From: Phytophthora quininea
Taxonomy: Eukaryota > Oomycota > Peronosporomycetes > Peronosporales > Peronosporaceae
DNA length: 64,000 bases
Assembly (NCBI GenBank): GCA_011947345.1
Contig: JAAVTG010000246.1
Span: 62,001-126,000, forward strand
Reading direction: 5' to 3'
Shown: positions 30,795 to 53,583 of the stretch, piece by piece
Numbering within the stretch: the stretch's first letter is position 1
Layout of the letters: each line of letters begins with the position of its first letter
Translations under genes and position numbers: made by a program
The notes under the pieces: generated by a model
Seen by the model: only the letters and a program-made list of their open reading frames with translations
Database searches by the model: none
What the model was told of the DNA's origin: nothing

Positions 30795-31514
30795 ATGAAG
30801 AACCTGCTCGCTGGCGTCGTTGCTGCTGCTACCATTGCGCTCGCTTCCGCCGGAGACTACTGCGGGCAATGGGACTACGCTAAGGGCACCAAGTACATTG
30901 TCTACAACAATTTGTGGAACAAGGCCAAGGCCACCTCCGGCAGTCAATGCACGGGCGTCGACAAGCTCAGCAGCTCCTCGGTCTCCTGGCACACGTCGTA
31001 CAGCTGGGCAGGAGCGTCCACTGAGGTCAAGTCGTACTCGAACGCCGCCCTGATCTTCACCCCGAAGCAGATCAAAAGCATCTCGTCAATCCCGTCCAAG
31101 ATGGCGTACTCGTACTCGTACTCTGACACGCTCGTCGCCGATGTTTCCTACGACCTGTTCACCAGCTCCAGTTCCAGCGGCAGCAACGAGTACGAGATCA
31201 TGATCTGGCTGGCTGCCTACGGTGGGGCTGGTCCTATCTCCAGCACTGGCAAGGCCATCGCCACCGCCACGATCGGCAGCAATCAGTTCAAGCTATACAA
31301 GGGGCCGAACGGCAGCACGACGGTCTTCTCGTTCGTGGCCACCAAGACGATCACCAACTTCTCCGCAGACCTTCTCAAATTCCTGAGCTACTTGGTGAAG
31401 AACCAGGGTCTGCCTTCGAGCCAGTACCTGATCACCCTGGAGGCTGGCACAGAGCCGTTCACGGGCTCGAACGCCAAGATGAAAGTGTCGTCGTTCTCCG
31501 CCACCGTCAACTAG
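30795..31514 (+). CDS. secreted GH12 xyloglucan-specific endoglucanase, XEG1-like
   Basis: 239 residues, intact and intronless. [19 protein letters not shown] is a clear signal peptide, with mature protein from [12 protein letters not shown]. The nucleophile Glu lies in [13 protein letters not shown] and the acid/base Glu in [11 protein letters not shown]. Two Cys (after GDY and in SQCTGVD) can form the conserved disulfide. The enzyme hydrolyses xyloglucan in the plant wall outside the hypha. In Phytophthora this family is also sensed by plants as a pattern. The start is the ATG at the signal peptide; the longer upstream frame has no support. Paralogue at 15003 has a broken start. Confidence 0.95.
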
Positions 31515-31608
31515 AGCGTCAAGTAGCTAATCTTTGCGTGGGATAAAGTTTTTCGTCATTTGTTTTGCCTAGCAGTTTTCGCTTGCAACCGCCACTATAA
31601 CGTTGACC

Positions 31609-33044
31609 ATGCAGAGCAAAAGCCGCTCGAGCGTGCAGAGGTCTTGGACTCCGTCATATGCACCCGTCTCCACCCTGAAGCAGGCTCGAGTCCGCTCTGG
31701 CGTCTCGGCAAATGCTGGCAATATCCCCAACAAGCTGTGCGGTAGCATCGAAAACCCTTCCAAGGAGAGCGGTGCCGAAACTTTTGCATCGTACAGCGAT
31801 CAATTGATGGCCGCGTTCAAGCGGAAGACGCAGGAGCTGTGTGACGAGACTCGGAACCAGTACGAGCAGAGACTCGAGCGCCAGGAGGTTCAACACGAGC
31901 GCCAGTTGCAGACTCTGCAACGCCAACTTCGTGACGTGATCGGCTCCAGTGTGTCGCTGACCGAGCACGAGCAGATCATCGCCGCAGCAACAGCCGACCA
32001 GCGACGCCACCTCGAAAATACCCGCAACCACCACGCTTCTGAAATGCGAGAGTTCGAGCAGCGATGCGCGCAGTCATGGCAAGCCAAACGAACAGCGCTG
32101 GACGAGCAGCACGAGCACGCGAAGGCTGCGCTGATGCAACGCATCAAGCAGCTTGAAATGCTGCAGAGTGAGAGATCAACGGAAGTCAAGGAACGGCAGC
32201 TGTCAGAATTGCGATGGAGTGAAAAAGTGGAGGAGACTCGAAGGGCGAAAGCAGCCGTTGACAAAAGCCTCCAAGACGCGGAGAAGAAACTGCAGGACGC
32301 GTGCCATCTCATTGTATCACTCAAGACGCGCCTGCAGCAGCGGACAAAATTGGCGCGGGAATTAGAGAGTTACCGTGATACGACTCGCGACGATGTGATG
32401 AAGTGCAAGCTCGCGTACGCCGAGATGAAGGGCAACATGGAAACTCGAATGGCAGGTTTGGAGAAAGAGCTGGCCCATTTGCAGCGCGCTTTAAACGATC
32501 AGAAGGCTAACAGCGCTGCGTTCCAGGTAGGCACTACTGCAACGTGGGCAAGCTAAAGCGCTTAGCCCCGTTATTCGATCTCATAAGCTACTTTGTGGTG
32601 GTGGAGCAGGACGACATTGCAGGTCTGCGCAGGCGACTAAGACGACAGCAATGCGTTGCGGCAGAACTCTGTGCAAAAGAGGCGTTGCGAACCGAGCACC
32701 ACACGGCCGAGAAGGAGCAGCTTCAAAAGGATATACATCGCCTACAGCAAAGCTTGGTGAACGAACAACAAGCATCAAAAGACGCTGCTTCTCAAGCGAA
32801 CGAGCGGCAACTTCGATTTCAAGAGCTACAGCTTCAACACCAGGACCTTCAAACACGCTCGGAGCTTCAGAGCGCGGCGGAGTCGATGTTGAAAAAGCAG
32901 CAGCAGCACTTACAGCACAAAGTGTCCCAGTACAAACTGCTGGTCGAAAAGCTGACCGCAGAGAACAAGAAAATCGGCGACGAGGTTCGCACCCGAGATG
33001 CCTCCACCGAGGCGTGGGCGAAGAAGCTGTTTGGCCGAAGCTGA
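31609..33044 (+). CDS. coiled-coil protein
   Basis: Two exons, 31609-32526 and 32610-33044, joined in phase across an 83-bp intron (CAG/GTAGGC...GAGCAG), give 450 residues. After a Ser-rich N-terminus of about 65 residues the protein is almost wholly coiled coil (DEQHEHAKAALMQRIKQLEML, KKQQQHLQHKVSQYKLL). No other domain is visible. Centrosomal, flagellar or cytoskeletal roles are common for such proteins, but nothing here decides it. GC is lower than in the synthetase gene. Confidence 0.75.
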
Positions 33045-33228
33045 AAGCTCTTTGTGGAGATCCGATACAAACCAAGATCTTTTCCTTTTGAAGTATCTAC
33101 GCGCTATTGTTTTGTCGGGGTCAGAGTACTCCGTTCGTGATCACGACCTTGGCAAGGTCTTTCATGTTGCCACATCTGTTTACTTTAAGATCGAGGCACA
33201 GCGAGATTACTCAAGAAATGACTGGTAG
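33045..33228. other. 3' region of the coiled-coil gene
   Basis: No supported coding sequence. An AATAAA lies on the plus strand at about 33270. Confidence 0.3.
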
Positions 33229-38935: not shown

Positions 38936-41433
38936 ATGTCGGTCATCGGCGTGGACTTTGGCAACGTGGACTGCGTGATCGGCCAGGCCAAGCGCGGCGG
39001 CATCGACATCATCCTCAATGAGAACTCCAACAGAAAGAACCCGTACGCCCCCCAAACTAGCTGAAATGGACTGGGGGCCACATCCACTAACCTACCTCTC
39101 GTTGCCGACAGCAACATGGTGTGCGTGCAGGGCAAGCAGCGCTTCATCGGCGAGGCGGCCATCAGCATGGCGCGCATGCACTACAAGAACACGGCCACGG
39201 ACATCAAGCGCCTGATCGGCCGCAAGTTCAAGCACCCGGAGGTGCAGCAGGAGATCGCGCAGCTCGCCTACCAGTGCGTGGAGCTCGCCAGCGGCGACGT
39301 GGGTATCGTGCTGCACTACAATGACGAGCCCGTGACCTTCTCGTGCGAGCAGGTCGTGGCCATGATCCTCAACAAGATGCAGAACATCGCGGCGGCCGCC
39401 AACGACGGCGTCAACCCGGCCTACTGCGTGCTCTCGTGCCCCGGCTTCTACACGGACGTGCAGCGCCGCGCATTGCTGAACGCCACCAAGATCGCCGGCC
39501 TCAACTGCCTGCGACTCATCAACGAGCACACGGCCATCGCGCTGGCCTACGGCATCTACAAGTCGGCCCGCAACCTCTTCCACGAGTCCGAGCCGCAGCA
39601 CGTCATGTTCATCGACCTGGGCCACGCCAGCTACACAGTGTCCATCGTGGCCTTCGTGCAGGGCCGCCTCACCGTCAAGTCGGCCGCCTTCGACCGCTTC
39701 CTCGGGGGCCGCGACTTTGACATGGTCATCGCCAAGGACGTGGCCAAAAAGTTCGCTGACAAGTACAAGACGGACCCGATGGCCCACCCCAAGTCGCGCA
39801 TCAAGCTGCTCTCGGCCTGCGAGAAGGCCAAGAAGAACCTGAGCCCCTACGGTGTCACTGCCACGCACATCAACATCGAGTGCCTAGCGGATGACCGCGA
39901 CTACAACTCGCAGGTGACGCTCGAGGAGTTCGAGGAGCTCATTGCCCCGCTGCTGCAGCGCCTGGACGATCCCATTGAGCGCGCTCTGAAGGACGCGGGC
40001 ATCGAGAAGTCACAACTGGCCAACGTGGAGATCGTCGGCGGTGGAACCCGTGTCACCAGCGTGAAGCGCCACCTCGCCGAGGTGCTGGGCCTGGACAAGG
40101 AGCAGCAGAACTACGGCCTGAGCACGACTCTGAATGCGGATGAGTCGGTTGCCCGCGGTTGCGCCCTGAACTGCGCCATCTTGTCGCCAATGTTCAAGGT
40201 CAAGGAGTTCAGCGTCACGGACCGCGTGCATCTGCCCGTGCGTGTGTCGTGGGACGGCAGCGCCTCGACGGCCACGGACGCCACCGAGGACAACGACGAG
40301 GATGTCAGCATGGAGACTCCCGCTTCGGAGGACAGCTCGCTGGTCATCTTCAACCGCAAGGACGAGTACCCCAAGACTAAGCGCGTTACATTCCGTCGCG
40401 ACAAGCCGTTCTCGATCGATGCCGTGTACGACGAGTCGGCCAAGGCCTACCTGCCTCCTGACTACGTGATGGAGCTCGGCAAGTACACGATCTCGGGCAT
40501 GCCCGCTCAGGAGGCCGGCGCGGAGGTGCCTAAGATCCGCGTCAACGTGCAGCAGGATATGAACGGCCTGTTCTCGGTGTCGTCGTCGCAGCTGATGCAG
40601 GAGGTTAAGGAGGAGGAGAAGCCCGCCGAGGAGGAAGCGAAGGAGGGCGAAGAGAAGAAGGAGGAGAAGGCCGACGAGAAGCCGGCTGAGCCCAAGAAGA
40701 AGCGTTTCCGCAAGGTCGAGCTGAAGGTGCAGGCCCAGGTTGGCGGCCTGTCGGCTGCCGACGTGACCGCTGCCACGGAGCAGGAGCTGAAGATGGCCCA
40801 GCAGGACCGCGTGATCGAGGAGACGTTCAACAAGCGTAACGAGCTGGAGAGCTTCGTGTATGAGATGCGCAACCAGATCACCGACCGCCTGGCCGGCTTC
40901 ATCACTTCTGAAGAGAAGAGCAAGCTCGAGGAGAAGCTCGTCGAGACGGAGGACTGGCTGTATACGGACGAGGGCTTCGACAGCACCAAGTCGGTGTACC
41001 AGGCCAAGCTGGACGACATGCGCAAGCTCTCGTCGCCCGTGGAGTTTCGTCTGACGGAGAGCACGGAGCGCGGCGTGGCGCAGGCCGAGCTGACGGCCGT
41101 GTTGGAGGAGTACAAGCGCATGGTGAACTCTGGCGACGACGCGTACTCGCACTGGACGGAGGACGAGAAGACGAAGCTCCGCCAAACGTGCGTGGACGCC
41201 GAGACGTGGCTGTTTGACAGCCTGACGAAGCAGGCGGACCTGAACCCGACAGACGCCCCTCCATCACCTCGGCTGCTATCCGCGCTAAGATTGTGGCGGT
41301 GCGTGCTGTGGCTCTGCCGATCACCACCAAGCCCAAGCCGATGCCGAAGGTGGAGACGCCCGCCCCGGAGCCGGCCAAGGAGGAGGCCGCCCCCGCTGAG
41401 GAGACGGAGGCTGAGAAGATGGACCTTGACTAA
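38936..41433 (+). CDS. Hsp110-family chaperone (Hsp70 superfamily)
   Basis: Exon 1 38936-39042 (MSVIGVDFGNVDCVIGQAKRGG), 69-bp intron, exon 2 from 39112, phase 2 join. About 809 residues, the usual Hsp110 length. The nucleotide-binding domain has VDFGN, GKQRFIGEAA, VMFIDLGHASYTVS and the VEIVGGGTRV signature. The long acidic loop KEEEKPAEEEAKEGEEKKEE and the extended helical C-terminus define Hsp110. It acts as nucleotide exchange factor for cytosolic Hsp70 and holds unfolded proteins. A one-base loss in a C run at about 41256-41260 shifts the last 58 codons. The alternative frame gives a Pro/Glu tail ending MDLD at 41433; the shifted frame would end at 41554. Confidence 0.93.
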
Positions 41434-41638
41434 GCGGTTCGAGACGGAGGAAGTTTGCACGAGGACGGCGCTGCACTTTCGCGAGCGGCGCTGCCATGCT
41501 TTTCGTACTAAGCTCCGAGAAGAGGCCCATAGACGCCGCGTTTTTGCGGTGTAGTTGCTAAGTCTCCATTCAAGTGTATTACCTCTGGGTTCTTGGTCAA
41601 GAAGGAATTGTTCCTCAGTTTTTGTGTCCGGGTAGATA

Positions 41639-44004
41639 TAACTAGGTTTACTCTGTTGTACCAACTCGTGCACGTTGTACGGTGTGTTTCTTCCGAGCCG
41701 GCGTCCGATGGTGCAGCCCCACTCTCCACCAGCCATTCAGCTGCACAGCCCCTCAAAAGAGTAGACCTCGCTTGCATGAAGTTATGGAGATGGCCTGCGA
41801 AGTCGCACTGGTCGCGCTCCTTCGCCGTACTGAAGCTCACACAGCGCCACATCCAAGATATTCCTCGAAGCGTTCACATCCCTGTTGACGGTTTGGCCGC
41901 AGCCACTATCTCTGCGTCGACAATGAAAGACCTTGTGCACAGCAACAGACCGCACGACGTTGTCGCGGCAGTGACGCATGGTTCTTTGGTTCACCATTCG
42001 CTCTGGACTGGGACAGCTGTGGTGCATCTGGCTCGTCAGGTACTCGTCGGTGGACTTGACGTCGCAGTAGTGAGAGAGCATGCGCTCCAAGCGCTTCACC
42101 ATTCCAGGATTTTTCTTCTTGATGATGCCCGCGGAGTTGGCGGCAGCCCAGTTCCCGAAAGCAACCAGAGTGTGCTGGCTGTTGTTGCCGGCCAGTTCGT
42201 TGCAGACCTTCTCCAGGATTTGTCGGCTAACATGCTCCGACGAAAACGCAGGTTCCTGAACGTCTTTTTCATGAAGAACGTCAGTAGTTTGTCTAGCTTG
42301 GGAACAACGTAGCGGATATGCTCCTTCAAGACCTCCAGAGAGGCCGTCTTCTTGGTTGGCACGTTCTTGAGAGTGGAGAGATTAAGGCGGAGACGGAAGT
42401 CCCAACTACAGAGGAGGTTGCCCCGAAGGCCGAGTCCGAGGCCCCGTAAAGTTTAGTCGACGGGGAATGTATCATTTTGTCAGAAAGCGTGGGTGCTGAC
42501 GTCGAATCTCGCGTCAGTAAACATGTCGATGCTGCCGGAGTCTAGGCCCCACACGACATTGTAGTCTTCGAGACGCCGAAGCGGCGGCTCTGCTGGCGCC
42601 ATAGATTTTTCCGATGCAGAGTAACACTGACACCTTTTCCATTCGTTGCCAGCTTGCAGTGAAAGTGAAGGCCGCACTTCTCGAAGCTCGCAACCCGAAA
42701 TAGGTTACGCCACCATAGTTCCGCCACTGAACCCCAAGTTTTGAAGCTCTCACCACGAGCAACCAGCTGCCTGCTCGCGGTCACCACGGTCATGCGTCCA
42801 TCCAACGTGCTACACTGAAGCAGGTCCCTCAGCACCGTCGAGTTGACGTGTGCGTAGGCACAGCGGAAACCTTGTTTCATCGGAACTAAGCTGAACGTTC
42901 GGGTGGCCTGGAACTTGTTTTTTTGCTGTTCTCTTCGTTCGCTGTCTCTACGGCAGAAAAGATGGTTGAGTAGAGCGGTAGCAACGCTTATGTGCTCCAG
43001 TTGATCTTGCCTTCGCTGTCTCGAGGAACCAGTCTTTGGACCTCGGTGGCTGCGTCGTGGTTTGACAGACAAACGGCACAGTCAGGAGGTAGAGCTTTCT
43101 TCTTGCGCTTCTTGGTGTGACAGAACTGGCACAGCCTTCTCGCGTACACTTCCCCATTGCACTTTTGACGATATCCGTTGCGTCACCGGATTTCTTGTTA
43201 TACTTAATAAAGACGTACAGTCGAAGCCGATGGCTGAGGTTCCGTGTCCACGCTGAGTCGAGTTTCCTTCGCCATTTTCTCTGCTGTTGAACCGCAAAGC
43301 CCCGGTTGATATACCTGCTGTTGATGGCACGTATATCACCTCGCAGCGCAATATACTCTTGAACTGCTGTCTCGAGGTACATGTCCTTTGCGCCCGCGTT
43401 GTTAACGGCGGCGAGATACTGCGCGGTCGTTTTGCCCACGCGTTTGGGGCCAGACAATCCAGCAAGACACTTGCGGTAGAACGGCTTGGTCAGCTTCACA
43501 AGCTGGCCGTTCGACGCCACCGTGTTGACATAAAAGTTGGCGAGGAAATATCCCTCTGCAACAACTCTATTCATCGTCTTTAGAACGTCCTCCCACGGAA
43601 GCGAGAGCGCCTCGTCCTTACAAACCGCGCGCAGTGTTGATTTTCTGCTGGCAAAGTTGTACGTTGTGTTGACCACTATCCGACGCGCTGTGTCGGGACG
43701 TGTGCCAACTCTACTTGGGTGTTCGGCTCGATTGGGTGGTGTGTTCTCGTCAGTGCGTTGACGCTTGGACTCTGGCTCGGCTTCTGTGGAAGGAGACTGC
43801 TGGCAGCCGCCACCGGAGTCGGGGATCCAGGTCAGCCTGCCATGCTCGGTGCAAATTGCAGAACGACTGAATTCGCCATCTTCGATCGAGTCCGCGCAAA
43901 CCTTCGGCTGGCTTCGTTCGAGCAGCCAGCGAAGGTTGGTGGTTGCCTTTTAAAATGGGGGTGCTAAATGACCCCCAGTGAAGCACGTCTTTCCCTGATC
44001 TATC
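41639..44004. repeat. left arm of a 2.37-kb inverted repeat
   Basis: The reverse complement of 48433-50803. Outer tips match TAACTAGG/CCTAGTTA. Near-identical over almost the whole arm, with length differences mainly in homopolymers. The last about 50 bp at the inner end are more diverged. Starts about 200 bp after the Hsp110 stop. Confidence 0.93.
41782..43676 (-). pseudogene. Fanzor (TnpB-like RuvC nuclease), copy 1
   Basis: Minus-strand ORFs 43676-42948, 43072-42542, 42677-42480, 42362-42096 and 42102-41782 read in order as one protein. RuvC-I is WGLDSGSIDMFTD, and the Cys/His zinc ribbon and RuvC-III are CGQTVNRDVNASRNI (about 41872-41886). VAFGNWAAANSAGI lies in between. This arrangement is that of Fanzor proteins, eukaryotic relatives of IS605 TnpB that cut DNA with an RNA guide. 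After RuvC-I a stop and an apparent deletion remove part of the insert region. The first zinc-ribbon Cys pair seems incomplete (CPSPERM). Probably inactive, unless errors explain the breaks. Confidence 0.85.
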
Positions 44005-44087
44005 GGTACAGCTTGGCGATCGTTTGAATTTGACTAATAAGGACTGAACAGCATCACGTGTATCGGTCTCTTACGAACGGCCAGACT

Positions 44088-44195
44088 GGACTGCTGTAGA
44101 CAATCTCAATGGAGCCTCTTGCTGATAAAGAGCTCAATTCGACCATTCAATGCTGTGGCCTGATCACTTTTCTACCGTGTGTCGCGCACTGTGGG
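44088..44195 (+). repeat. direct repeat at the left end of the spacer
   Basis: GGACTGCTGTAG, then AATGGA-CCTCTTGC and TCACTTTT, match 48113-48212 in the same orientation at roughly three quarters identity. Possibly remnants of one element's ends. Confidence 0.45.
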
Positions 44196-46189
44196 TCCCT
44201 ACGCGGGTCGGGTAGCTGTCTGTCGAGTTTGGTGAGAGGGGATTAGGAACACTAGTCACCGGTAGCCTCCAAGAACGGTCGATAGGAACGCTCGAGTAAA
44301 TGAAAACCGTCTTAGTTAGACTTTAAAACCTTCTTCTTGTCCTTGTAGGTCTTGGTCTTCGATACTCAAACGCTCTTCAAAGCCGACTTGGGGGCCGTAG
44401 GGAAATGCACAACTAGGGTCGGCTCGGTGCAGCTTGCGAGGGCGGGCTACTTGATTCTCTGGCTCATACCTTGCTCCAGCCGCCATGCTCACTGCGCCTG
44501 CCGCCAATACATAGATTCTCTGTCCACTTGGACCTTCACCTGGTCCTTACAAGCGTCCACCTCCTTGGCTACGCCAGGAATCAGCTGCTGCAGTCCTCTC
44601 GGGCACCTGCTCGACTGAAAGCTGAACCGTTCCACGGAACGGTGGGGTTCCCTGGGCCACGGTTGAGGTATCCTGTTGCTTGATCCACGCGCCGCGGTGC
44701 GGGACACGTGTCTTGGACGTCTTTGTGGTGTAGCAATTCTCCGCTATGCTGCCGCTCGATGATTGAGCCCGTTGAGGGCCTGGCGGAAGTGGAACATTAG
44801 CAGTATTGGGTGTGTCAGGGGCATACTGAAGCGGAGTCAAAACCACGCTGACGAACATCTGGAGAATGCGTCACTAAGCTGGGCTCACGAACATGGGTTT
44901 AAGATGACTGCCTAGTTCAGGACGAATCCAGACTATGTTAGGCTGGATGATCCTAGTCTCCGCAGAGAGTCGCTGAGATCCAAAACGAGCCCTGGTTCAC
45001 TGTATATTTGTGTAGGACACACTGAAAGACATGGGAGATGACAAGGCCGAAGGACCACACTAAACAGAACAGTATTTCCCCTCGATTACTCAAGCCGCAC
45101 GAGCTCCTGGACTTCCAGAGGTAAGTGTGGCGAAGGTCGATAAAACTTTTCGCCCAGGGTGTATAGTGACCACGGTAGATGGGGGATGCACCTAGGAAGT
45201 GTGTCTGGCAAACAGAACTTCCAGGAAAGATCTTGGACGCAGACCTTGATCTGAGTTCAGGAACTTGGCGTGCACCTTGTGATAATCCCTGTCGGCTCGA
45301 TCGCTAGACTCGGTAGACCGGATTTGTCACCAGGCACTCAAGGTTTGGGTCTTGCTTGTTCTTGGACGCACGTACTAGAACGCACTTGACTCCTTAACAC
45401 TCTCGAACGGCGCGGAGAGACGAGGGGGCGTGGAGCGTAGAGAGTAGAGAGAACTTCTCCACTTAAACCAACAATACAGAGAATCTGATGTGCTAAACGC
45501 AGTAATATGTAGCCGTCTCTAATTCTTTGAGACCCTTGGACGGGGGTCTATAGCTGAGTACAATCAGGAATGTGCACCCAAGACGCTCAGGTCACCTTGA
45601 GCACTCCTGGACGATCGCGCACCACCCTCAGCGAGGAAAAACACTAGGCCAGACGGGGCCTTGACACTTGAACCGGAGAACTTGACCAACCGTGGACTTC
45701 TCGGGGAGGGGGGTTGAACGCAGTTACAGTTCAGATTTGGACTCCTGCACGCTTACTACCGACGCGCACCGGAGGTGGGAAAAAATGAAATGGGTTATCG
45801 CAACGGATAGACGGTCCAACTGGGAAATGGAATGGGAGGAGCCCTGGACGCACGCGCCTTAAGATCCCCCACCCAACTTGACTTGACACGGATGGGGAGC
45901 TCCGGCGACACCTCGGGCCGTCTTGTCCTTCACGCCTTGCACACACGCGCTCTCAGGAAACCACTTCCAAAACCACTTGTGGGCTTCTTGGCAAATCGAA
46001 CTCTCTGTTTGTTTTTATCTAAGACTCTTTCTCTCTCTTCTCTCTGTGCTCTTGCGATTTTGGGTACAAATCAGGCTTCTACGCTTGTCTTGACTTGAGT
46101 ATGTGCAGGACTTGTCGCCTCGACACTTTTACTGGATTCTTTTCCAGGCTCAACCTGTGGCGCAATCATCGGCACCGAAAACAGATTCA

Positions 46190-46415
46190 CCCTGAACGCA
46201 CTTGTGTTCAGGACGCACCTTGTGCCTTGAACGCACTCCCATCTTGGATGTCACGTCTTGAACGCACTCTTGATACATCCGCATAGTGGAATCCATAGTA
46301 ACATGATGCAACCAGGGAATATCGACTTGGACTCATCTGCGTTCAGGATCTTTATTTGCGTTCAAGATATAGGGTCTGCGTTCAGGATATCTTGGACTGC
46401 GTTCGGGATAACTTC
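46190..46415. repeat. head-to-head cluster of GCGTTCAAG words
   Basis: CTGAACGCAC or CTTGAACGCACT occurs three times in one orientation (46190-46270). TGCGTTCAGGAT, TGCGTTCAAGAT, TGCGTTCAGGAT and TGCGTTCGGGAT follow in the other (46339-46412). Isolated relatives lie at about 45375. Confidence 0.6.
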
Positions 46416-46807
46416 AGTGGGGACACATTCTGGGGAGTATGTTTGACATCTGCTACGGGTGCTGCAGGGTCCTTGTTACCGACCAAGGCAAGGGCAGGTC
46501 TCCGCACAAATACGTTCCGCACGGAGATTTACACCTTAAGAGGTAACCCGCCTTCAGGACGAGGGGCGGCCGAGACTGAGTGCATATCTGCGTCCAGGGA
46601 ATTCTGCATCCTTGCGTGCACTTCTCGTACCTAAGGTCCCTCCTTGGTAGGACACCTGCATCCAGCGCAGCTGTGTTCAAACTGCCTCCTATAGTACGCA
46701 TGTGTTGTTTCCCACTTGAAATTTTCATTCACCAATCATCGCCCAGTATCTTGAGTTCAGTATACTCCACATAGAAAAATCAACTTTTACATCGTGTCGT
46801 AAGGCTT

Positions 46808-47071
46808 GTGTGTGTGCGGTTTGGATTATGCCAGTTCGGCGAACCCGGTAAGCAGTGTGTGCGAGCGTTCGTTGGTAAGGGCAAGAAGTGTGTGTTTTCC
46901 GAAAGGGATTGGTTCGCGGCGCGTGCTAAGCCGCTATATTGCCAAGGAGAGCCTATTCACCTCTGTCCAACCCCTATTAGCCGTGGCTCTGCTGCTGCGG
47001 CTCCGGAAGCGCTTCCCCGCTTTCCCCAGGCGTGGCTTCCTCTCTTTAGAGGAACCCCGGAGTTTGAGTGA
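46808..47071 (+). CDS. hypothetical short ORF in the spacer
   Basis: 87 codons from a true ATG. Five Cys, a Gly/Lys-rich N-terminus and a Pro-rich end. No family, no clear promoter. Could be chance or a retroelement remnant. Confidence 0.15.
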   Translation: MCVRFGLCQFGEPGKQCVRAFVGKGKKCVFSERDWFAARAKPLYCQGEPIHLCPTPISRGSAAAAPEALPRFPQAWLPLFRGTPEFE

Positions 47072-48112
47072 GTGTATTGTGTGGTAAGCGTCCTAACCAA
47101 AGCTCGGGGCTAGTGGCGCCGCTTGGTCGGCCGAAACACCGCAGGGGTGCGTTTGACTGGCTCTGGGTGAGTCGAGTTGGGCGTCCTTCAGGCGAAGCCT
47201 CAACTCTCGTCGAACCTTCGCAAGATGGCGAGACGTGTTGTTGTGGGCAGGGGCTACTGTATTAAGGCTACGTTGCCAAGTGGAGTAATTTCTACACCAC
47301 AACAGCATGTAGGCGCTGCCGTCCTTGCCGTCCAAGGCGCGGAGCTCCAACGGCGTCTGGTACATCAGTGAATCACCATCGTTGAGCTGGTTGGCCCTTG
47401 GTGTCGCGTCGACCCGGAGTTGTTACCAAAGAGGTAAGTTTATTAATGATGGAAAAAGCAAACAAATTTGCGGATCTGAGCTAAATCTCCTCTTGTAGTT
47501 CTCCTTGCGCTCTCGCCCAGATTCAGCGTTCATGCAGTTGTGAGCGCGTGCCTCCGCCCACTTGTAGCCTGTGCCGCGTGCACCAAGCCCCTTAGAATCC
47601 CTTGTCGTCATCCTTGTCGTGCCTCGCTAGTGCTGCGGCGCGTGCCCGATTGCATCCTGCTTCTCCTATTGGACTCCTGCCTGAGTGCACGGCAAACTAG
47701 CGCTGCTGCAGAGCCCAAGTTTGATCTTCAACCGCAATCATGGCGACACTCGAATTGGCGTGACGATGAACTTGGCTTCTTAAAAACGACCCTGGGCGTC
47801 TTCAGTGACTGGAGGCACCACCGGAAGTTGGGTTGGGATATTACCAGGGAGGTCCAGGAAGCCGGAAGCCGGCAGCCGCCGGAGTGCTGACCTTGACGAA
47901 GGAAGACCTCGTTTGCAGCTTGACGACATCGCCAAATCGGATCAGGTGCTCGACGGCGCTCACAACTGGGAGATAAAGCGAATAAGCAAACCCGTTCTCA
48001 CGTCTTTTGCGCGTTGTGGGAGAAGTTTCCTACTGAGGAGTTGCTGTAAAATCCCATTCGCAAGCCGTTATATAATTGCTCTGCTGGGTTCTTCACGCTA
48101 GCAATAGTAGGC

Positions 48113-48212
48113 GGACTGCTGTAGGCAGTAGCAATGGAACCTCTTGCCTGTGAAAGGCTCAGTCACGACCTCCATTAGTTGCCACGGTCACTTTTGCCCT
48201 GCCCTGCACAAT
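48113..48212 (+). repeat. direct repeat at the right end of the spacer
   Basis: Partner of 44088-44195, same orientation. Confidence 0.45.
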
Positions 48213-48432
48213 GCAATGGCAACTCACTTCAACTTGATACCTCCCAAATAGAGGACCCTACTCAGATCGCATCACCGGTCGAGTACTATGGTATTCTCTA
48301 CGACAACTAGAAAAGACCCGCGGCCCCAGTATGCACGTCGGTAAGAGGCCCCGCTCCCGTGACGCTGTCAGGGGAGTTTAGTGGCCAACACAACCAACTT
48401 TCAAAATGATTGGTTAAAGCTGAAGTTGTCCT

Positions 48433-50803
48433 GATAGATCAGGGAAAGGCGTGCTTCAAACACTGCACTGGGGTCATCCAGCACCCCCATTTTAAAAGGC
48501 AACCACCAACCTTCGCTGGCTGCTCGAACGAAGCCAGCCGAAGGTTTGCGCGAACTCGATCGAAGATGGCGAATTCAGTCGTTCTGCAATTTGCACCGAG
48601 CATGGCAGGCTGACCTGGATCCCCCGACTCCGGTGGCGGCTGCCAGCAGTCTCCTTCCACAGAAGCCGAGCCAGAGTCAAGCGTCAACGCACTGACGAGA
48701 ACACACCACCCAATCGAGCCGAACACCCAAGTAGAGTTGGCACACGTCCCGACACAGCGCGTCGGATAGTGGTCAACACAACGTACAACTTTGCCAGCAG
48801 AAAATCAACACTGCGCGCGGTTTGTAAGGACGAGGCGCTCTCGCTTCCGTGGGAGGACGTTCTAAAGACGATGAATAGAGTTGTTGCAGAGGGATATTTC
48901 CTCGCCAACTTTTATGTCAACACGGTGGCGTCGAACGGCCAGCTTGTGAAGCTGACCAAGCCGTTCTACCGCAAGTGTCTTGCTGGATTGTCTGGCCCCA
49001 AACGCGTGGGCAAAACGACCGCGCAGTATCTCGCCGCCGTTAACAACGCGGGCGCAAAGGACATGTACCTCGAGACAGCAGTTCAAGAGTATATTGCGCT
49101 GCGAGGTGATATACGTGCCATCAACAGCAGGTATATCAACCGGGGCTTTGCGGTTCAACAGCAGAGAAAATGGCGAAGGAAACTCGACTCAGCGTGGACA
49201 CGGAACCTCAGCCATCGGCTTCGACTGTACGTCTTTATTAAGTATAACAAGAAATCCGGTGACGCAACGGATATCGTCAAAAGTGCAATGGGGAAGTGTA
49301 CGCGAGAAGGCTGTGCCAGTTCTGTCACACCAAGAAGCGCAAGAAGAAAGCTCTACCTCCTGACTGTGCCGTTTGTCTGTCAAACCACGACGCAGCCACC
49401 GAGGTCCAAAGACTGGTTCCTCGAGACAGCGAAGGCAAGATCAACTGGAGCACATAAGCGTTGCTACCGCTCTACTCAACCATCTTTTCTGCCGTAGAGA
49501 CAGCGAACGAAGAGAACAGCAAAAAACAAGTTCCAGGCCACCCGAACGTTCAGCTTAGTTCCGATGAAACAAGGTTTCCGCTGTGCCTACGCACGTCAAC
49601 TCGACGGTGCTGAGGGACCTGCTTCAGTGTAGCACGTTGGATGGACGCATGACCGTGGTGACCGCGAGCAGGCAGCTGGTTGCTCGTGGTGAGAGCTTCA
49701 AAACTTGGGGTTCAGTGGCGGAACTATGGTGGCGTAACCTATTTCGGGTTGCGAGCTTCGAGAAGTGCGGCCTTCACTTTCACTGCAAGCTGGCAACGAA
49801 TGGAAAAGGTGTCAGTGTTACTCTGCATCGGAAAAAATCTATGGCGCCAGCAGAGCCGCCGCTTCGGCGTCTCGAAGACTACAATGTCGTGTGGGGCCTA
49901 GACTCCGGCAGCATCGACATGTTTACTGACGCGAGATTCGACGTCAGCACCCACGCTTTCTGACAAAATGATACATTCCCCGTCGACTAAACTTTACGGG
50001 GCCTCGGACTCGGCCTTCGGGGCAACCTCCTCTGTAGTTGGGACTTCCGTCTCCGTCTTAATCTCTCCACTCTCAAGAACGTGCCAACCAAGAAGATGGC
50101 CTCTCTGGAGGTCTTGAAGGAGCATATCCGCTACGTTGTTCCCAAGCTAGACAAACTACTGACGTTCTTCATGAAAAGACGTTCAGGAACCTGCGTTTTC
50201 GTCGGAGCATGTTAGCCGACAAATCCTGGAGAAGGTCTGCAACGAACTGGCCGGCAACAACAGCCAGCACACTCTGGTTGCTTTCGGGAACTGGGCTGCC
50301 GCCAACTCCGCGGGCATCATCAAGAAGAAAAATCCTGGAATGGTGAAGCGCTTGGAGCGCATGCTCTCTCACTACTGCGACGTCAAGTCCACCGACGAGT
50401 ACCTGACGAGCCAGATGCACCACAGCTGTCCCAGTCCAGAGCGAATGGTGAACCAAAGAACCATGCGTCACTGCCGCGACAACGTCGTGCGGTCTGTTGC
50501 TGTGCACAAGGTCTTTCATTGTCGACGCAGAGATAGTGGCTGCGGCCAAACCGTCAACAGGGATGTGAACGCTTCGAGGAATATCTTGGATGTGGCGCTG
50601 TGTGAGCTTCAGTACGGCGAAGGAGCGCGACCAGTGCGACTTCGCAGGCCATCTCCATAACTTCATGCAAGCGAGGTCTACTCTTTTGAGGGGCTGTGCA
50701 GCTGAATGGCTGGTGGAGAGTGGGGCTGCACCATCGGACGCCGGCTCGGAAGAAACACACCGTACAACGTGCACGAGTTGGTACAACAGAGTAAACCTAG
50801 TTA
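48433..50803. repeat. right arm of a 2.37-kb inverted repeat
   Basis: The reverse complement of 41639-44004. An insertion of about 10 bp (TTTGAAGCA region near 48455) and single-base run differences distinguish it. Confidence 0.93.
48769..50660 (+). pseudogene. Fanzor (TnpB-like RuvC nuclease), copy 2
   Basis: ORFs 48769-49497 (N-terminal helical domain), 49373-49558, 49583-49963, then 50096 onward and 50340-50660. In this copy the wedge-like part (VNSTVLRDLLQ, KCGLHFHCKLATNGKGVSV) is in frame with RuvC-I GLDSGSID (about 49895-49918), while copy 1 has a shift there. Conversely copy 2 has a shift near 49530 where copy 1 is open. RuvC-III NRDVNASRNI is at about 50553-50582. The frame is readable upstream of 48769 (KRQRTDENTPPNRAEHP), so the real start lies further 5', perhaps near 48567 (MANSVVLQFAPSMAG). 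Same stop after RuvC-I as copy 1. Confidence 0.85.
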
Positions 50804-51080
50804 AGGACACCACGGGCCATGGTTCGCCAAAATCCGCGTTATGAGTGCCGTCTTCCCCGTGCCAACCACCTAGGCGCGTAATATGAGGACTTTTTTTCTG
50901 CAGCGATTCTCTCGTTTTGAAAGCACATTCAAACAGAACGACCCTGCCACCATCAGTCGTTGACGATTGCCAACCAAATTGCTGGCTACCAGCGTACTAA
51001 CAGCAGCGTCAGCAGCACCGCTCGGCCAACCGTTCTTCAAAACCAAGCGTCGGCTTGCTCTGTTAACCTGGCCTCTCACC
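50804..51080. other. spacer between the Fanzor arm and the pogo relic
   Basis: No supported feature. It probably includes the pogo element's left end. Confidence 0.35.
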
Positions 51081-52840
51081 CTTTCGGCGGCATTCGGCAA
51101 ATTGCCTGCTCCGGCTGCAATGTCACCCAAGAAAAAGCGGAACAGCTACAACCTTCACTTCAAATAACAAGTCGCCAGCAAGTACAAGGCCAACGTCGGA
51201 GGCTGCGGTTATCATGCACTGGCTCAACAGTACAAGCTTACTTCGTCCATGGTCCATGGCTGGGTGAATCAACTTGACAAGCTCGAACAAGCACTGAGGG
51301 ACCGCCAGGTTGTTACCCGCGTGCAGCGACGCTTTCCTGGCGCCAAACGAAAACCTGCGCATGACGAACTCGAGAAGCAGCTTCACGATTGGACATCGAT
51401 CCGAAACCAAAAAGATTACGAGTCAAAGACAAATACATCCAGCTCCAAGCATTAAACCGCTCCCAACAAAACAATGACACCGTACACCATCAGCCCTTTG
51501 CCGCCTCAACAGGATGGCTTGATCGCTTTAGAACTCGGTACAACCTCGTTTCAAGGCGCCAAATTACCACGAGAACAATACCGCCGGACGCTGACGAAAC
51601 ATGTCTAGAGTTTATCGAACCAGCGCAGAAACTGATAGAGGAGCATGGAATTTTGCCTGGCAACGTGATCAACATGGACCCAATCCTCGGTATTTTGAAA
51701 CCGAACCAAACAGCACCATTACAACTCGTGACGTAAACGAAGTGCTACTTCGGAAAGGAGGAAGCAGTCACAAGAGGTTCACTGCGACGTTTGCTATCAC
51801 TAGTGACGAGGAGTTTTTAACTCCTCATCTTCTCTTCTCAAAACTGAAGCACAAACCGGCGGTCCCCAAGGGCGTTGTTGTGGATGTAAACACAACCGGT
51901 ATGTGGAACGATAAGATTCTCCTCGATTACGCGAAGACTGTCATTTGCAGCAGGAAGGAGACTCAATTTTATCGGCAGCCTGTTCTTTAGATCATTGATT
52001 CGTACGCATGCCATATCACGCTGTTCAGTGAGAAGCTGCTTCAGTGATACAATATATTTGTTCTGTTGGTGCCCTTCCACCTGACAAGTCTTCTCCAGCC
52101 TCTTGATGTAGCTGTGAATCGAAGCTTCCAAGCTTTCTACACGAACCAGCATGACGAGTACATTGGCCGAGCACTGGATGACACATCACTGCAGATGAAG
52201 TCAGGAAACACCAAAGTGCCAAGCTATTCTGTTGTTGCACAGTGGTTTTTGGACTGGATCGCTACGAGGACAGCTGATATCTGTGGTGTAGTTGGACGCT
52301 CCAGCTTTGACAAGTCCGATTTACACTCGCCGCTTCGCGATCTGGTCGACTCCAGCATCAACATGCACGAGTGGCACCTTCGGTATCAACACCTACTCAA
52401 CAACGACAACGGCGACGACGGCAGGAGGAACTCTGTATCCAGCAACCAGCTTGGTATACGCCAGAGGATATTGGCTCAAGTCTGTTCTGTTGCCTTAGGC
52501 ACTCGGTCGCTAGCTACGAATCTGACTACGTTGCCGCTCTGGCCCAGTACATGCAAGGGCTCAATGAGCTTAGCGGATTGTTCGACGATGACTACATTGC
52601 GTCAATCCGGAACGGACGAGATGGGAGCGAGCTCGGGATTTATGCAGCAGCTCAGTATCACAGATGCAACATTGAGCTTAAAACCCTTAACTACGACTGC
52701 AAGGTCGTGTCGACGTTCAAATACTTCGCAGAAGGCGTTTCTAGAACAGTTTGTATTCTTGCCAGATACAAACAAGCTAGGATGGACGTATAGAAGCAAT
52801 GTCGTACTGGTAATTACCGGTAGTGATCAGCGTTGGCATT
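51081..52840 (+). pseudogene. pogo/Tigger-like (CENP-B type) transposase relic
   Basis: The N-terminal helix-turn-helix region is readable after SPKKKRNSYN (KYKANVGGCGYHALAQQYKLTSSMVHGWV in pieces). A Tc5-type DNA-binding segment follows with STGWLDRFRTRYNLVSRRQI. The DDE core is spread over frames: [10 protein letters not shown] (first Asp), [29 protein letters not shown] (second Asp), then [20 protein letters not shown] with the third Asp. At least four frame changes and a stop. The C-terminal part (to 52842) is less certain. Inactive relic. Confidence 0.7.
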
Positions 52841-52910
52841 AAAGTTTGAGAGGGCCCAATATCTGTACCGGTATTACCGGTAGTGACCACCGGGCATTAG
52901 AAAAATGAAG
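52800..52910. repeat. ACCGGTAGTGA repeats beyond the pogo relic
   Basis: AATTACCGGTAGTGATCA and TATTACCGGTAGTGACCA occur 58 bp apart (about 52811 and 52869), the second next to ACCGGTATTACCGGT. They may be terminal repeats of a transposon. The rest to 53070 holds no gene. Confidence 0.4.
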
Positions 52911-53070
52911 TGGGTGGGCGTTTATGGGTGGGTGGGATTTCAGTATAATTAAATGCCGTCTCCAATACAAAATGCAAGATAGGTGACTAAATGGATACAG
53001 CCCAAATATTCGTGAAATACACTGGGTGGGCTTGAAAAAGCCCATAAACCTTTATCCCAGTTTGCGAACC

Positions 53071-53583
53071 ATGGCCAGGTAAGACGACGTCTCGGACGTC
53101 TCGGACGCTGCCGGTGCGCCCCCACCTTCTCCTAACGCTCGCTGCGATGCTTGTGTGTGACTGCAACCGATGGACAGCAGTGCAGCGGGCGAGTTCAAGC
53201 GTGTGCAGGAGGACGAGGAGGAGTTCCAGAAGGGCCCGCTGTCAGTCCTCATGCACAGCGTCAAGAACAACTCGCAGGTACTCATCAACGTGCGCAACAA
53301 CCACAAGTTGCTGGCTCGCGTCAAGGCCTTCGACCGCCACTGCAATATGTGAGAATATGTATCCAACTATCAGCAAGGGAAATGCTCATACCACCACCAC
53401 CAACTGTTTATTTGCTGCTGCTGCTGTAGGGTGCTGGAGAACGTCAAGGAGATGTGGACGGAGGTGCCCAAGTCCGGCAAGGGCAAGAAGGCCGCCAAGC
53501 CAGTGAATAAGGACCGCTTCGTCAGCAAAATGTTCCTGCGCGGAGACTCGGTCATCATCGTGATGCGGAACCCTCACGCTTAG
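53071..53583 (+). CDS. SNRPD2: small nuclear ribonucleoprotein SmD2
   Basis: Exons 53071-53078 (ATGGCCAG), 53181-53348 and 53430-53583 join in phase with GTAAGA and GTGAGA donors. An alternative start is the ATG at 53170 without the first intron. [52 protein letters not shown] is the Sm1 fold and the linker of SmD2. [18 protein letters not shown] is Sm2. SmD2 is part of the seven-membered Sm ring on U1, U2, U4 and U5 snRNA for splicing. About 107 residues, normal for the family. No frame damage. Confidence 0.95.

What the first reader, a model, noticed from the sequence alone, without database searches (positions are those of the whole stretch)
41639..50803. Two Fanzor-type RNA-guided nuclease genes in a 2.37-kb inverted repeat
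Each arm carries a TnpB-like protein with RuvC-I GLDSGSID, a zinc ribbon and RuvC-III NRDVNASRNI, reading outward from a 4.4-kb spacer. Fanzors are the eukaryotic relatives of IS605 TnpB and are reported in oomycetes. What is unusual is the head-to-head pair forming the arms of what could be one foldback transposon. If the outer tips TAACTAGG are real ends, the nucleases would be carried inside very long terminal repeats. A guide RNA gene would be expected next to the C-terminal end of each arm (about 41640-41780 and 50660-50803).
Basis: partly seen in the sequence, partly recalled or inferred. Interest (0 to 1): 0.88.

Follow-up and report, generated by a model that had tools for sequence, protein, structure and literature searches.

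The report
Foldback element armed with Fanzor genes
In an oomycete genome, two broken copies of a Fanzor (RNA-guided nuclease) gene, facing away from each other, form the arms of one long inverted repeat; the same back-to-back arrangement occurs, whole or as a remnant, at two other sites in the genome, so it is likely a foldback-type mobile element whose two arms would have been kept alike by copying from one another.

Summary
The inverted repeat is real: arms 41639-44014 and 48423-50803, 2362 of 2386 columns identical. Each arm holds a Fanzor1-type gene reading outward. Both genes are broken (frame changes, stops), and related copies show no protein-level constraint.

The homologous contig C691 carries the same pair between the same flanks, with the spacer flipped. 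The arms evolve in concert: 126 sites (45 of them in one replaced stretch) separate the two haplotypes and none follows the arms. Two probable solo LTRs (2.2 kb) enlarged the spacer later. A second site (C691:70.2-72.4 kb) keeps one arm, both spacer edges in order and the start of the second arm. At a third (C551) a 6.2-kb block bounded by such arms is missing from two collinear contigs.

So head-to-head Fanzor units behave as one foldback-like element. Transposase, target duplication and guide RNA remain unproven: TA ends are suggestive at one site, no clean duplication is seen at another, and the conserved 3' segment folds no better than shuffled sequence.

The parts
41639..44014 (-). left arm of the inverted repeat: one Fanzor unit, gene reading leftward (outward)
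   Evidence: 2362/2386 columns identical to the right arm
48423..50803 (+). right arm: one Fanzor unit, gene reading rightward (outward)
41791..43700 (-). broken Fanzor1-type gene, left arm (pieces in frames -1,-2,-1,-3)
   Evidence: tblastn of a 615-aa P. nicotianae relative
48745..50657 (+). broken Fanzor1-type gene, right arm (pieces in frames 2,1,2,3,1)
   Evidence: Pfam TNB in 50340-50657
41639..41781 (-). 3' non-coding end of left unit (where a guide RNA would be expected); outer tip TAACTAGGTTTACTCTG
50661..50803 (+). 3' non-coding end of right unit; core 50693-50753 is 94.7% conserved over four rows of other copies against a mean of 88.3% over 161 windows
   Evidence: fold not significant
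44015..48422 (.). spacer between the arms; its two edges (44017-44071 and 48123-48347) are shared with locus C691:70-72 kb, where the spacer is about 0.3 kb
44180..44706 (.). probable solo LTR inserted later, 5-base duplication CGTGT; absent from the homologous locus
45125..46799 (.). second probable solo LTR inserted later, duplication GTAAG; absent from the homologous locus
44088..44136 (.). 49-base direct repeat, left copy (78% to 48113-48161); brackets the 4-kb insert that locus C691:70 kb lacks
48113..48161 (.). 49-base direct repeat, right copy
50002..50066 (.). 65-base stretch alike to a host gene, in place of the native Fanzor sequence, right arm
42377..42441 (.). the same 65-base stretch in the left arm

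Best explanation
Two Fanzor1-type units, now broken, lie head to head as the 2.4-kb arms of one inverted repeat that is likely a foldback-type transposon, in which the 3' end of each unit would serve as a transposon end. Shown: arms, broken genes, the same junction at another locus, a block-wise presence/absence difference at a third, arms that differ between haplotypes but not left from right, and a spacer in opposite orientations in the two assembled haplotypes. Inferred: (1) a transposase supplied in trans acts on two copies of the same 3' end, so that two units facing outward move as one block; (2) the arms pair within a chromatid, and repair of breaks copies one arm into the other (gene conversion), or, with crossover, flips the spacer; (3) later insertions (two probable solo LTRs, a dispersed repeat) swelled the spacer. 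The window copy is a relic: it can convert and flip by host recombination but encodes no intact nuclease.
For: Second locus: C691:70243-72394 keeps, in one order, an arm with the same 16-base tip, the right spacer edge (84%), the left spacer edge (91%) and about 56 bases of the second arm (91%); nothing else in the 10 kb fetched there matches the window. Third locus: C551:97806-104017 (two 2.3-kb arms 99.8% alike around 1.5 kb, outer ends CAGAGGTTC and GAACCTCTG) is missing as a block from collinear stretches of C643 and C145. Concerted evolution: of the gap-free columns, 126 separate both window arms from both C691 arms (81 outside the replaced stretch), 0 follow the arms; 18 of the 20 private differences lie at arm edges. 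Flip: flanks align minus, spacer plus, between the window and C691:434838-461225. The 65-base foreign stretch sits in both window arms and in none of the 6 other rows printed. Fanzor.
Against: No clean target duplication: at the window the outer TA lies inside the repeat, at C691:70 kb the same place reads CA, and at C551 the junctions carry extra bases. Both haplotypes carry the window pair, so its own empty site was not seen; a search with the flanks of C691:70 kb found no empty site there either. No transposase is tied to the tips; the 16-base tip occurs 4 times in the genome at up to 1 mismatch, all in these units, with 2 hits of the reversed control pattern. The C551 pair has another tip and another spacer, so it may have arisen separately. 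The absence in C643/C145 could be loss of a palindrome instead of absence before insertion. At C352/C570 (one shared site) and in C551 copy 1 a unit stands alone. C551 copies 1 and 2 face each other, so not every neighbouring pair is head to head.
Confidence: 0.6

Rival explanations
1. A single Fanzor transposon inserted next to the HSP70-family gene and was duplicated in inverted orientation on the spot; gene conversion then kept the arms alike. The pair never moved as a unit.
For: Single units exist (C352/C570, C551 copy 1). Concerted evolution and the flip need only an inverted duplication.
Against: The same arm-spacer-arm junction lies at an unrelated site (C691:70-72 kb), and another pair is present or absent as a block.
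Confidence: 0.25
2. Assembly artefact: the inverted repeat, or its near-identity, was created by the assembler.
For: 2.4-kb arms 99% alike are hard to assemble; the flipped spacer in C691 could be a mis-joined orientation.
Against: The homologous contig shows the same pair with 81 consistent differences outside the replaced stretch; each locus has private arm differences, and the window spacer has two insertions with 5-base duplications against unfilled sites in C691; a second locus keeps the junction. The spacer orientation stays exposed to this doubt.
Confidence: 0.05
3. The two Fanzor genes are working nucleases whose paired placement boosts guide RNA or protein output.
For: Conserved core of the 3' segment.
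Against: Frame changes and stops in both arms; third codon positions are no more variable than first and second (93.1 against 90.1 and 90.6% identity over four rows); the fold of the 3' segment is not better than shuffles.
Confidence: 0.02
4. The C551 pair was ancestral and the palindrome was deleted in C643 and C145, so block-wise movement is not shown there.
For: Junctions have extra bases and no clean target duplication; palindromes are prone to deletion (general knowledge, no call).
Against: The missing block starts within 5 bases of one outer tip and ends 56 bases past the other; the three C551 units are 99.4-99.8% alike, which fits a recent origin; two contigs lack the block.
Confidence: 0.3

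Closest known systems
Fanzor1-carrying DNA transposons (SPu-1 and the Tc/mariner-type PUl and PGv elements of Bao and Jurka 2013, PMC3627910; passages and section 7 seen)
   Same: Fanzor1 gene in a DNA transposon; TA next to the ends; Fanzor1 families listed for Phytophthora and Pythium
   Different: There one Fanzor gene lies between short terminal repeats (33 bp in SPu-1); here a whole Fanzor unit makes up each terminal repeat
Galileo and Tetris, foldback-like elements (PMC2775673, PMC4079207; passages seen)
   Same: Very long inverted arms around a variable middle; in 2 of the 4 Galileo copies of Table 2 the two arms of a copy differ by under 1%; Galileo is linked to inversions
   Different: The copies described there lack coding capacity and their arms hold tandem repeats; here each arm carries a nuclease gene
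Human Y palindrome P6 (PMC3723533; abstract and passages seen)
   Same: Arm-to-arm gene conversion and occasional inversion
   Different: Not a mobile element; conversion there is GC-biased, no GC bias was seen here
Solved Fanzor1 structures of Spizellomyces (8gkh) and Parasitella (9cf0)
   Same: Family profile match E 1.2e-24 and 5.7e-19
   Different: Those are intact proteins; the window genes are broken

Membership tests
Fanzor1 | TnpB-like C-terminal zinc ribbon and RuvC-III | tested here: met
   Pfam Cas12f1-like_TNB above cut-off; NRDVNASRNI aligned with five relatives
Fanzor1 | Sequence relationship to proven Fanzor1 proteins | tested here: met
   Family profile A3 (20 sequences, with the C551 relative but not the window's own broken frames) against Spizellomyces Fanzor 1.2e-24 and Parasitella Fanzor 1 5.7e-19. 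Single pieces are weak: the C551 frame found Parasitella Fanzor 1 at E 0.081; the window's 106-aa piece found an unrelated hormone at 0.34 and a TnpB-like protein at 0.67
Fanzor1 | Intact nuclease frame | tested here: not met
   Frame jumps and stops in both arms
Fanzor1 | Guide RNA made from the 3' end | tested here: inconclusive
   Conserved core but fold z-scores 0.22 and -0.76; no Rfam match; covariation not tested; no small-RNA reads available
Foldback-type transposon | Very long inverted arms around a variable middle | tested here: met
   Arms 2.4 kb; middle 4.4, about 0.3 (remnant) and 1.5 kb at three loci
Foldback-type transposon | Found as a unit at more than one site | tested here: met
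   Window/C691 homologous site, C691:70 kb remnant, C551 pair; the third has its own tip and spacer and may be a separate origin
Foldback-type transposon | Target site duplication | tested here: inconclusive
   TA at both window tips but inside the repeat; CA at C691:70 kb; none clean at C551
Tc1/mariner-mobilised element | Ends shared with a transposase-encoding mariner element | tested here: inconclusive
   The 16-base tip at up to 1 mismatch was found 4 times in the genome, all in these units, which would miss diverged ends; the neighbouring Tc5/pogo-type element has other ends

The most novel reading that the evidence does not exclude
A transposon class whose terminal repeats are complete RNA-guided nuclease loci: each end carries its own Fanzor and guide-RNA region, the element moves by any two outward-facing 3' ends, and when the genes were alive a guided cut in one arm was repaired from the other, so the nuclease itself drove the arms' copying and the spacer's flipping.
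Probability: 0.12. Interest if true: 0.87.

Novelty: new variant of a known kind. Interest (0 to 1): 0.56.

Why it matters
Fanzors are the eukaryotic RNA-guided nucleases now studied for editing, and what they do for their transposons is open. An element in which both ends are whole Fanzor units, found as pairs at several sites and homogenised arm to arm, gives a natural setting to ask whether the nuclease promotes copying between element copies. If the inferred movement is right, it also means that the 3' (guide-RNA) end alone can define both ends of an element. And it offers haplotype-resolved gene conversion inside a transposon.

Tried and rejected
Active nuclease pair: rejected. Structured guide RNA in the 3' segment: folds scored z 0.22 and -0.76, Rfam gave no match at E 0.1; covariation was not run; left undecided. 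Guide-RNA conservation: first looked strong from BLAST identities of the 3' end, but windowed counts put the segment at 90.2% against a mean of 88.3%, only the 61-base core at 94.7%; downgraded. The neighbouring pogo-type transposase as mobiliser: its terminal repeat (50815-50830 / 53061-53076) is unlike the Fanzor tip; rejected. GC-biased conversion: 56 polarised sites gave 18 GC-to-AT and 6 AT-to-GC changes on the window branch, 15 and 12 on the C691 branch; no GC bias. The count of 126 locus sites includes 45 from one replaced stretch. Empty site of the C691:70-kb unit: searched with its flanks, none found. Solved-structure searches with single pieces gave only weak hits. 'Ragged 5' ends' as a rule was weakened on checking: by BLAST against the window the 5' ends of C551 copies 3 and 2 and of C570 fall at 43957, 43938 and 43965, close together; only C551 copy 1 (43876) and C352 (43375) lie further in.
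Full report
THE OBSERVATION. The arms are 41639-44014 and 48423-50803; 2362 of 2386 alignment columns agree, 99.49% of 2371 gap-free columns in the multiple alignment. Each arm reads outward. The 23-base tip is found exactly twice in the window, 0 expected in 100 shuffles.

IDENTITY OF THE GENE. The 106-aa C-terminal frame passes Pfam's TNB (zinc ribbon) cut-off with E 1e-6. A 300-aa open frame from a related unit (C551) finds 10 proteins: four with names, from Phytophthora or Nothophytophthora (40, 40, 39 and 33% identity), and six without or with generic names, up to 54% over 46% of the query. A 519-aa Fanzor frame from the same genome finds 65 proteins, many of 550-660 aa, including P. nicotianae and P. 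capsici. A profile of 20 such sequences matches the Fanzors of Spizellomyces (E 1.2e-24) and Parasitella (5.7e-19), the only two solved sequences at E 0.01. The host is taken to be an oomycete of the Phytophthora group: the flanking HSP70-family protein is 87-89% identical to eleven named Phytophthora entries (82% to P. boehmeriae) and 91% to an unnamed one in the 120 listed of 7633. Species not determined.

THE GENES ARE BROKEN. A 615-aa relative aligns to the right arm in frames 2,1,2,3,1 and to the left arm in -1,-2,-1,-3; stops lie inside. C551 copy 1 also changes frame (2,1,3,2). Over four rows (C691 right arm, C551 copy 3, C352, C570), identity at codon positions 1, 2 and 3 is 90.1, 90.6 and 93.1%, so protein-level selection is not seen between these copies.

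THE SAME LOCUS IN THE OTHER HAPLOTYPE. Window 37519-44014 matches C691:461225-454716 (95.2%, minus) and 52758-64000 matches C691:446092-434838 (97.9%, minus), while the spacer with its adjoining arm (44707-45125, 46799-50799) matches in plus. So the segment between the arms is inverted relative to its flanks. C691 lacks 44180-44706 and 45125-46799; the joints show 5-base duplications CGTGT and GTAAG against unfilled sites in C691. Copies of the first stretch lie about 12.5 kb apart on five contigs, copies of the second about 15.6 kb apart on four (best candidates only), as expected of LTRs; 'solo LTR' is inferred from this. Window 31000-33119 lies at C691:393658-395783 in plus at 98%, so the contigs are taken as homologous chromosomes that differ by a larger inversion too.

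CONCERTED EVOLUTION. In the four-way comparison of arms (2 window, 2 C691), 2214 columns are identical, 126 separate the loci, none separates left from right arms in either phase, 20 are private; 97 columns with gaps were set aside, 36 of them with the locus pattern. 45 of the 126 lie in one stretch where both window arms carry 65 bases 94-97% identical to C333:76415-76479 and C571:665547-665611 in place of about 70 native bases, leaving 81 sites. Of 12 window arm-to-arm substitutions, 10 lie in the innermost 131 bases; all 8 of C691 lie in the outermost 33. This is what arm-to-arm gene conversion leaves behind: a homogenised core and frayed edges. The replaced stretch suggests one break repaired with a host-gene patch, then copied to the other arm (inference).

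OTHER SITES. A whole-genome search with the 3' half of the arm gave 13 matches, two of them only the 65-base host stretch. The other 11 form four loci. (A) Window and C691:446-461 kb. (B) C691:70243-72394: arm, right spacer edge 72035-72254 (84% to 48347-48123), left spacer edge 72264-72318 (91% to 44071-44017), then 72339-72394, an inverted copy (91%) of the arm's inner end 71942-71995. The order is that of the window without its 4-kb insert; nothing else in the 10 kb fetched there matches the window, apart from a few bases next to the tip. No empty site was found for it. (C) C352 and C570: single units at one site (3' flanks 96.7% over 3294 columns, 53 identical bases 5'). (D) C551: three units 99.4-99.8% alike, of which 97810-100109 (minus) and 101647-103961 (plus) are head to head around 1.5 kb that includes 0.9 kb 91% like C752 and C401. 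In the stretches fetched, C643 and C145 are collinear with C551 up to 97805 and again from 104018, with 35 other bases between: the pair is missing as a block. C145 also lacks copy 1. In 3 of the 5 units of C and D (C551 copies 2 and 3, C570) the 3' end is the same (GAACCTCTG); copy 1 and C352 do not keep it. The 5' ends of those three lie within 27 bases of each other but are not identical; copy 1 and C352 start further in.

MECHANISM. Shown: structure, recurrence, block-wise presence/absence, homogenised arms, opposite spacer orientation in the two assembled haplotypes. Inferred: mobility as a foldback element through two copies of one end, transposase in trans, conversion by break repair. 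The window tips carry TA on both sides, as mariner-type elements do (PMC3627910), but TA is inside the repeat, locus B reads CA and locus D has no clean duplication, so the transposase class stays open.

GUIDE RNA. The 3' segment 50661-50787 is 90.2% conserved over four rows, its core 50693-50753 94.7%, against 88.3% (sd 4.2) over 161 windows; several coding windows score as high. Folding is no better than shuffles; Rfam has nothing at E 0.1. A former guide-RNA region is plausible, not shown.

AGAINST KNOWN THINGS. Fanzor1 transposons are known with a single gene between short repeats, and Fanzor1 families are listed for Phytophthora and Pythium (PMC3627910, passages and section 7; also passages of PMC10432273 and PMC10711439). 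Foldback elements with long arms, and recombination between their copies, are known (PMC2775673, PMC4079207, passages). I saw no report of Fanzor units as the arms of such an element in searches; these cover open-access papers only, and I saw their listings (40 of 82, 7, 15 of 27 and 12 of 18 papers) and the passages named, not whole papers.

VERDICT. A real, unusual arrangement and a relic; new variant of a known kind.

Noticed in passing
window 50815-53076: A pogo/Tc5-type transposase gene (HTH_Tnp_Tc5, E 5.8e-7, in 51389-51733) inside a 16-base inverted terminal repeat (50815-50830 / 53061-53076), starting about 12 bases outside the right Fanzor arm; the stretch is also present in the C691 haplotype.
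   Followed up: partly
window 33-37.5 kb against C691:395-461 kb: The homologous contig is inverted relative to the window from about 37.5 kb on, while 31.0-33.1 kb is in the same orientation: a large inversion between haplotypes or a mis-join.
   Followed up: partly
C691:450102-451832 (L009): A 1.7-kb insertion with inverted ends CAGACAACGACGAATTAATCCGGCA in one arm of the C691 pair only.
   Followed up: no
genome G000: 102 protein-level matches to the Fanzor C-terminus, fragments included, several in long open frames (519 aa at C669:246 kb); outside this subfamily I saw no two matches of opposite strand within 20 kb in that list.
   Followed up: partly
C551:93-97 kb and C145, C643: Three related tandem genes, DNase I/exonuclease-like by my reading of the frames (not searched), lie between Fanzor copies 1 and 2.
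   Followed up: no
window 41240-41554: The C-terminal end of the HSP70-family frame next to the left arm departs from relatives (at most 94% of the frame covered in the listed matches), and the C691 frame reads alike: a small intron or a shared frame change.
   Followed up: no
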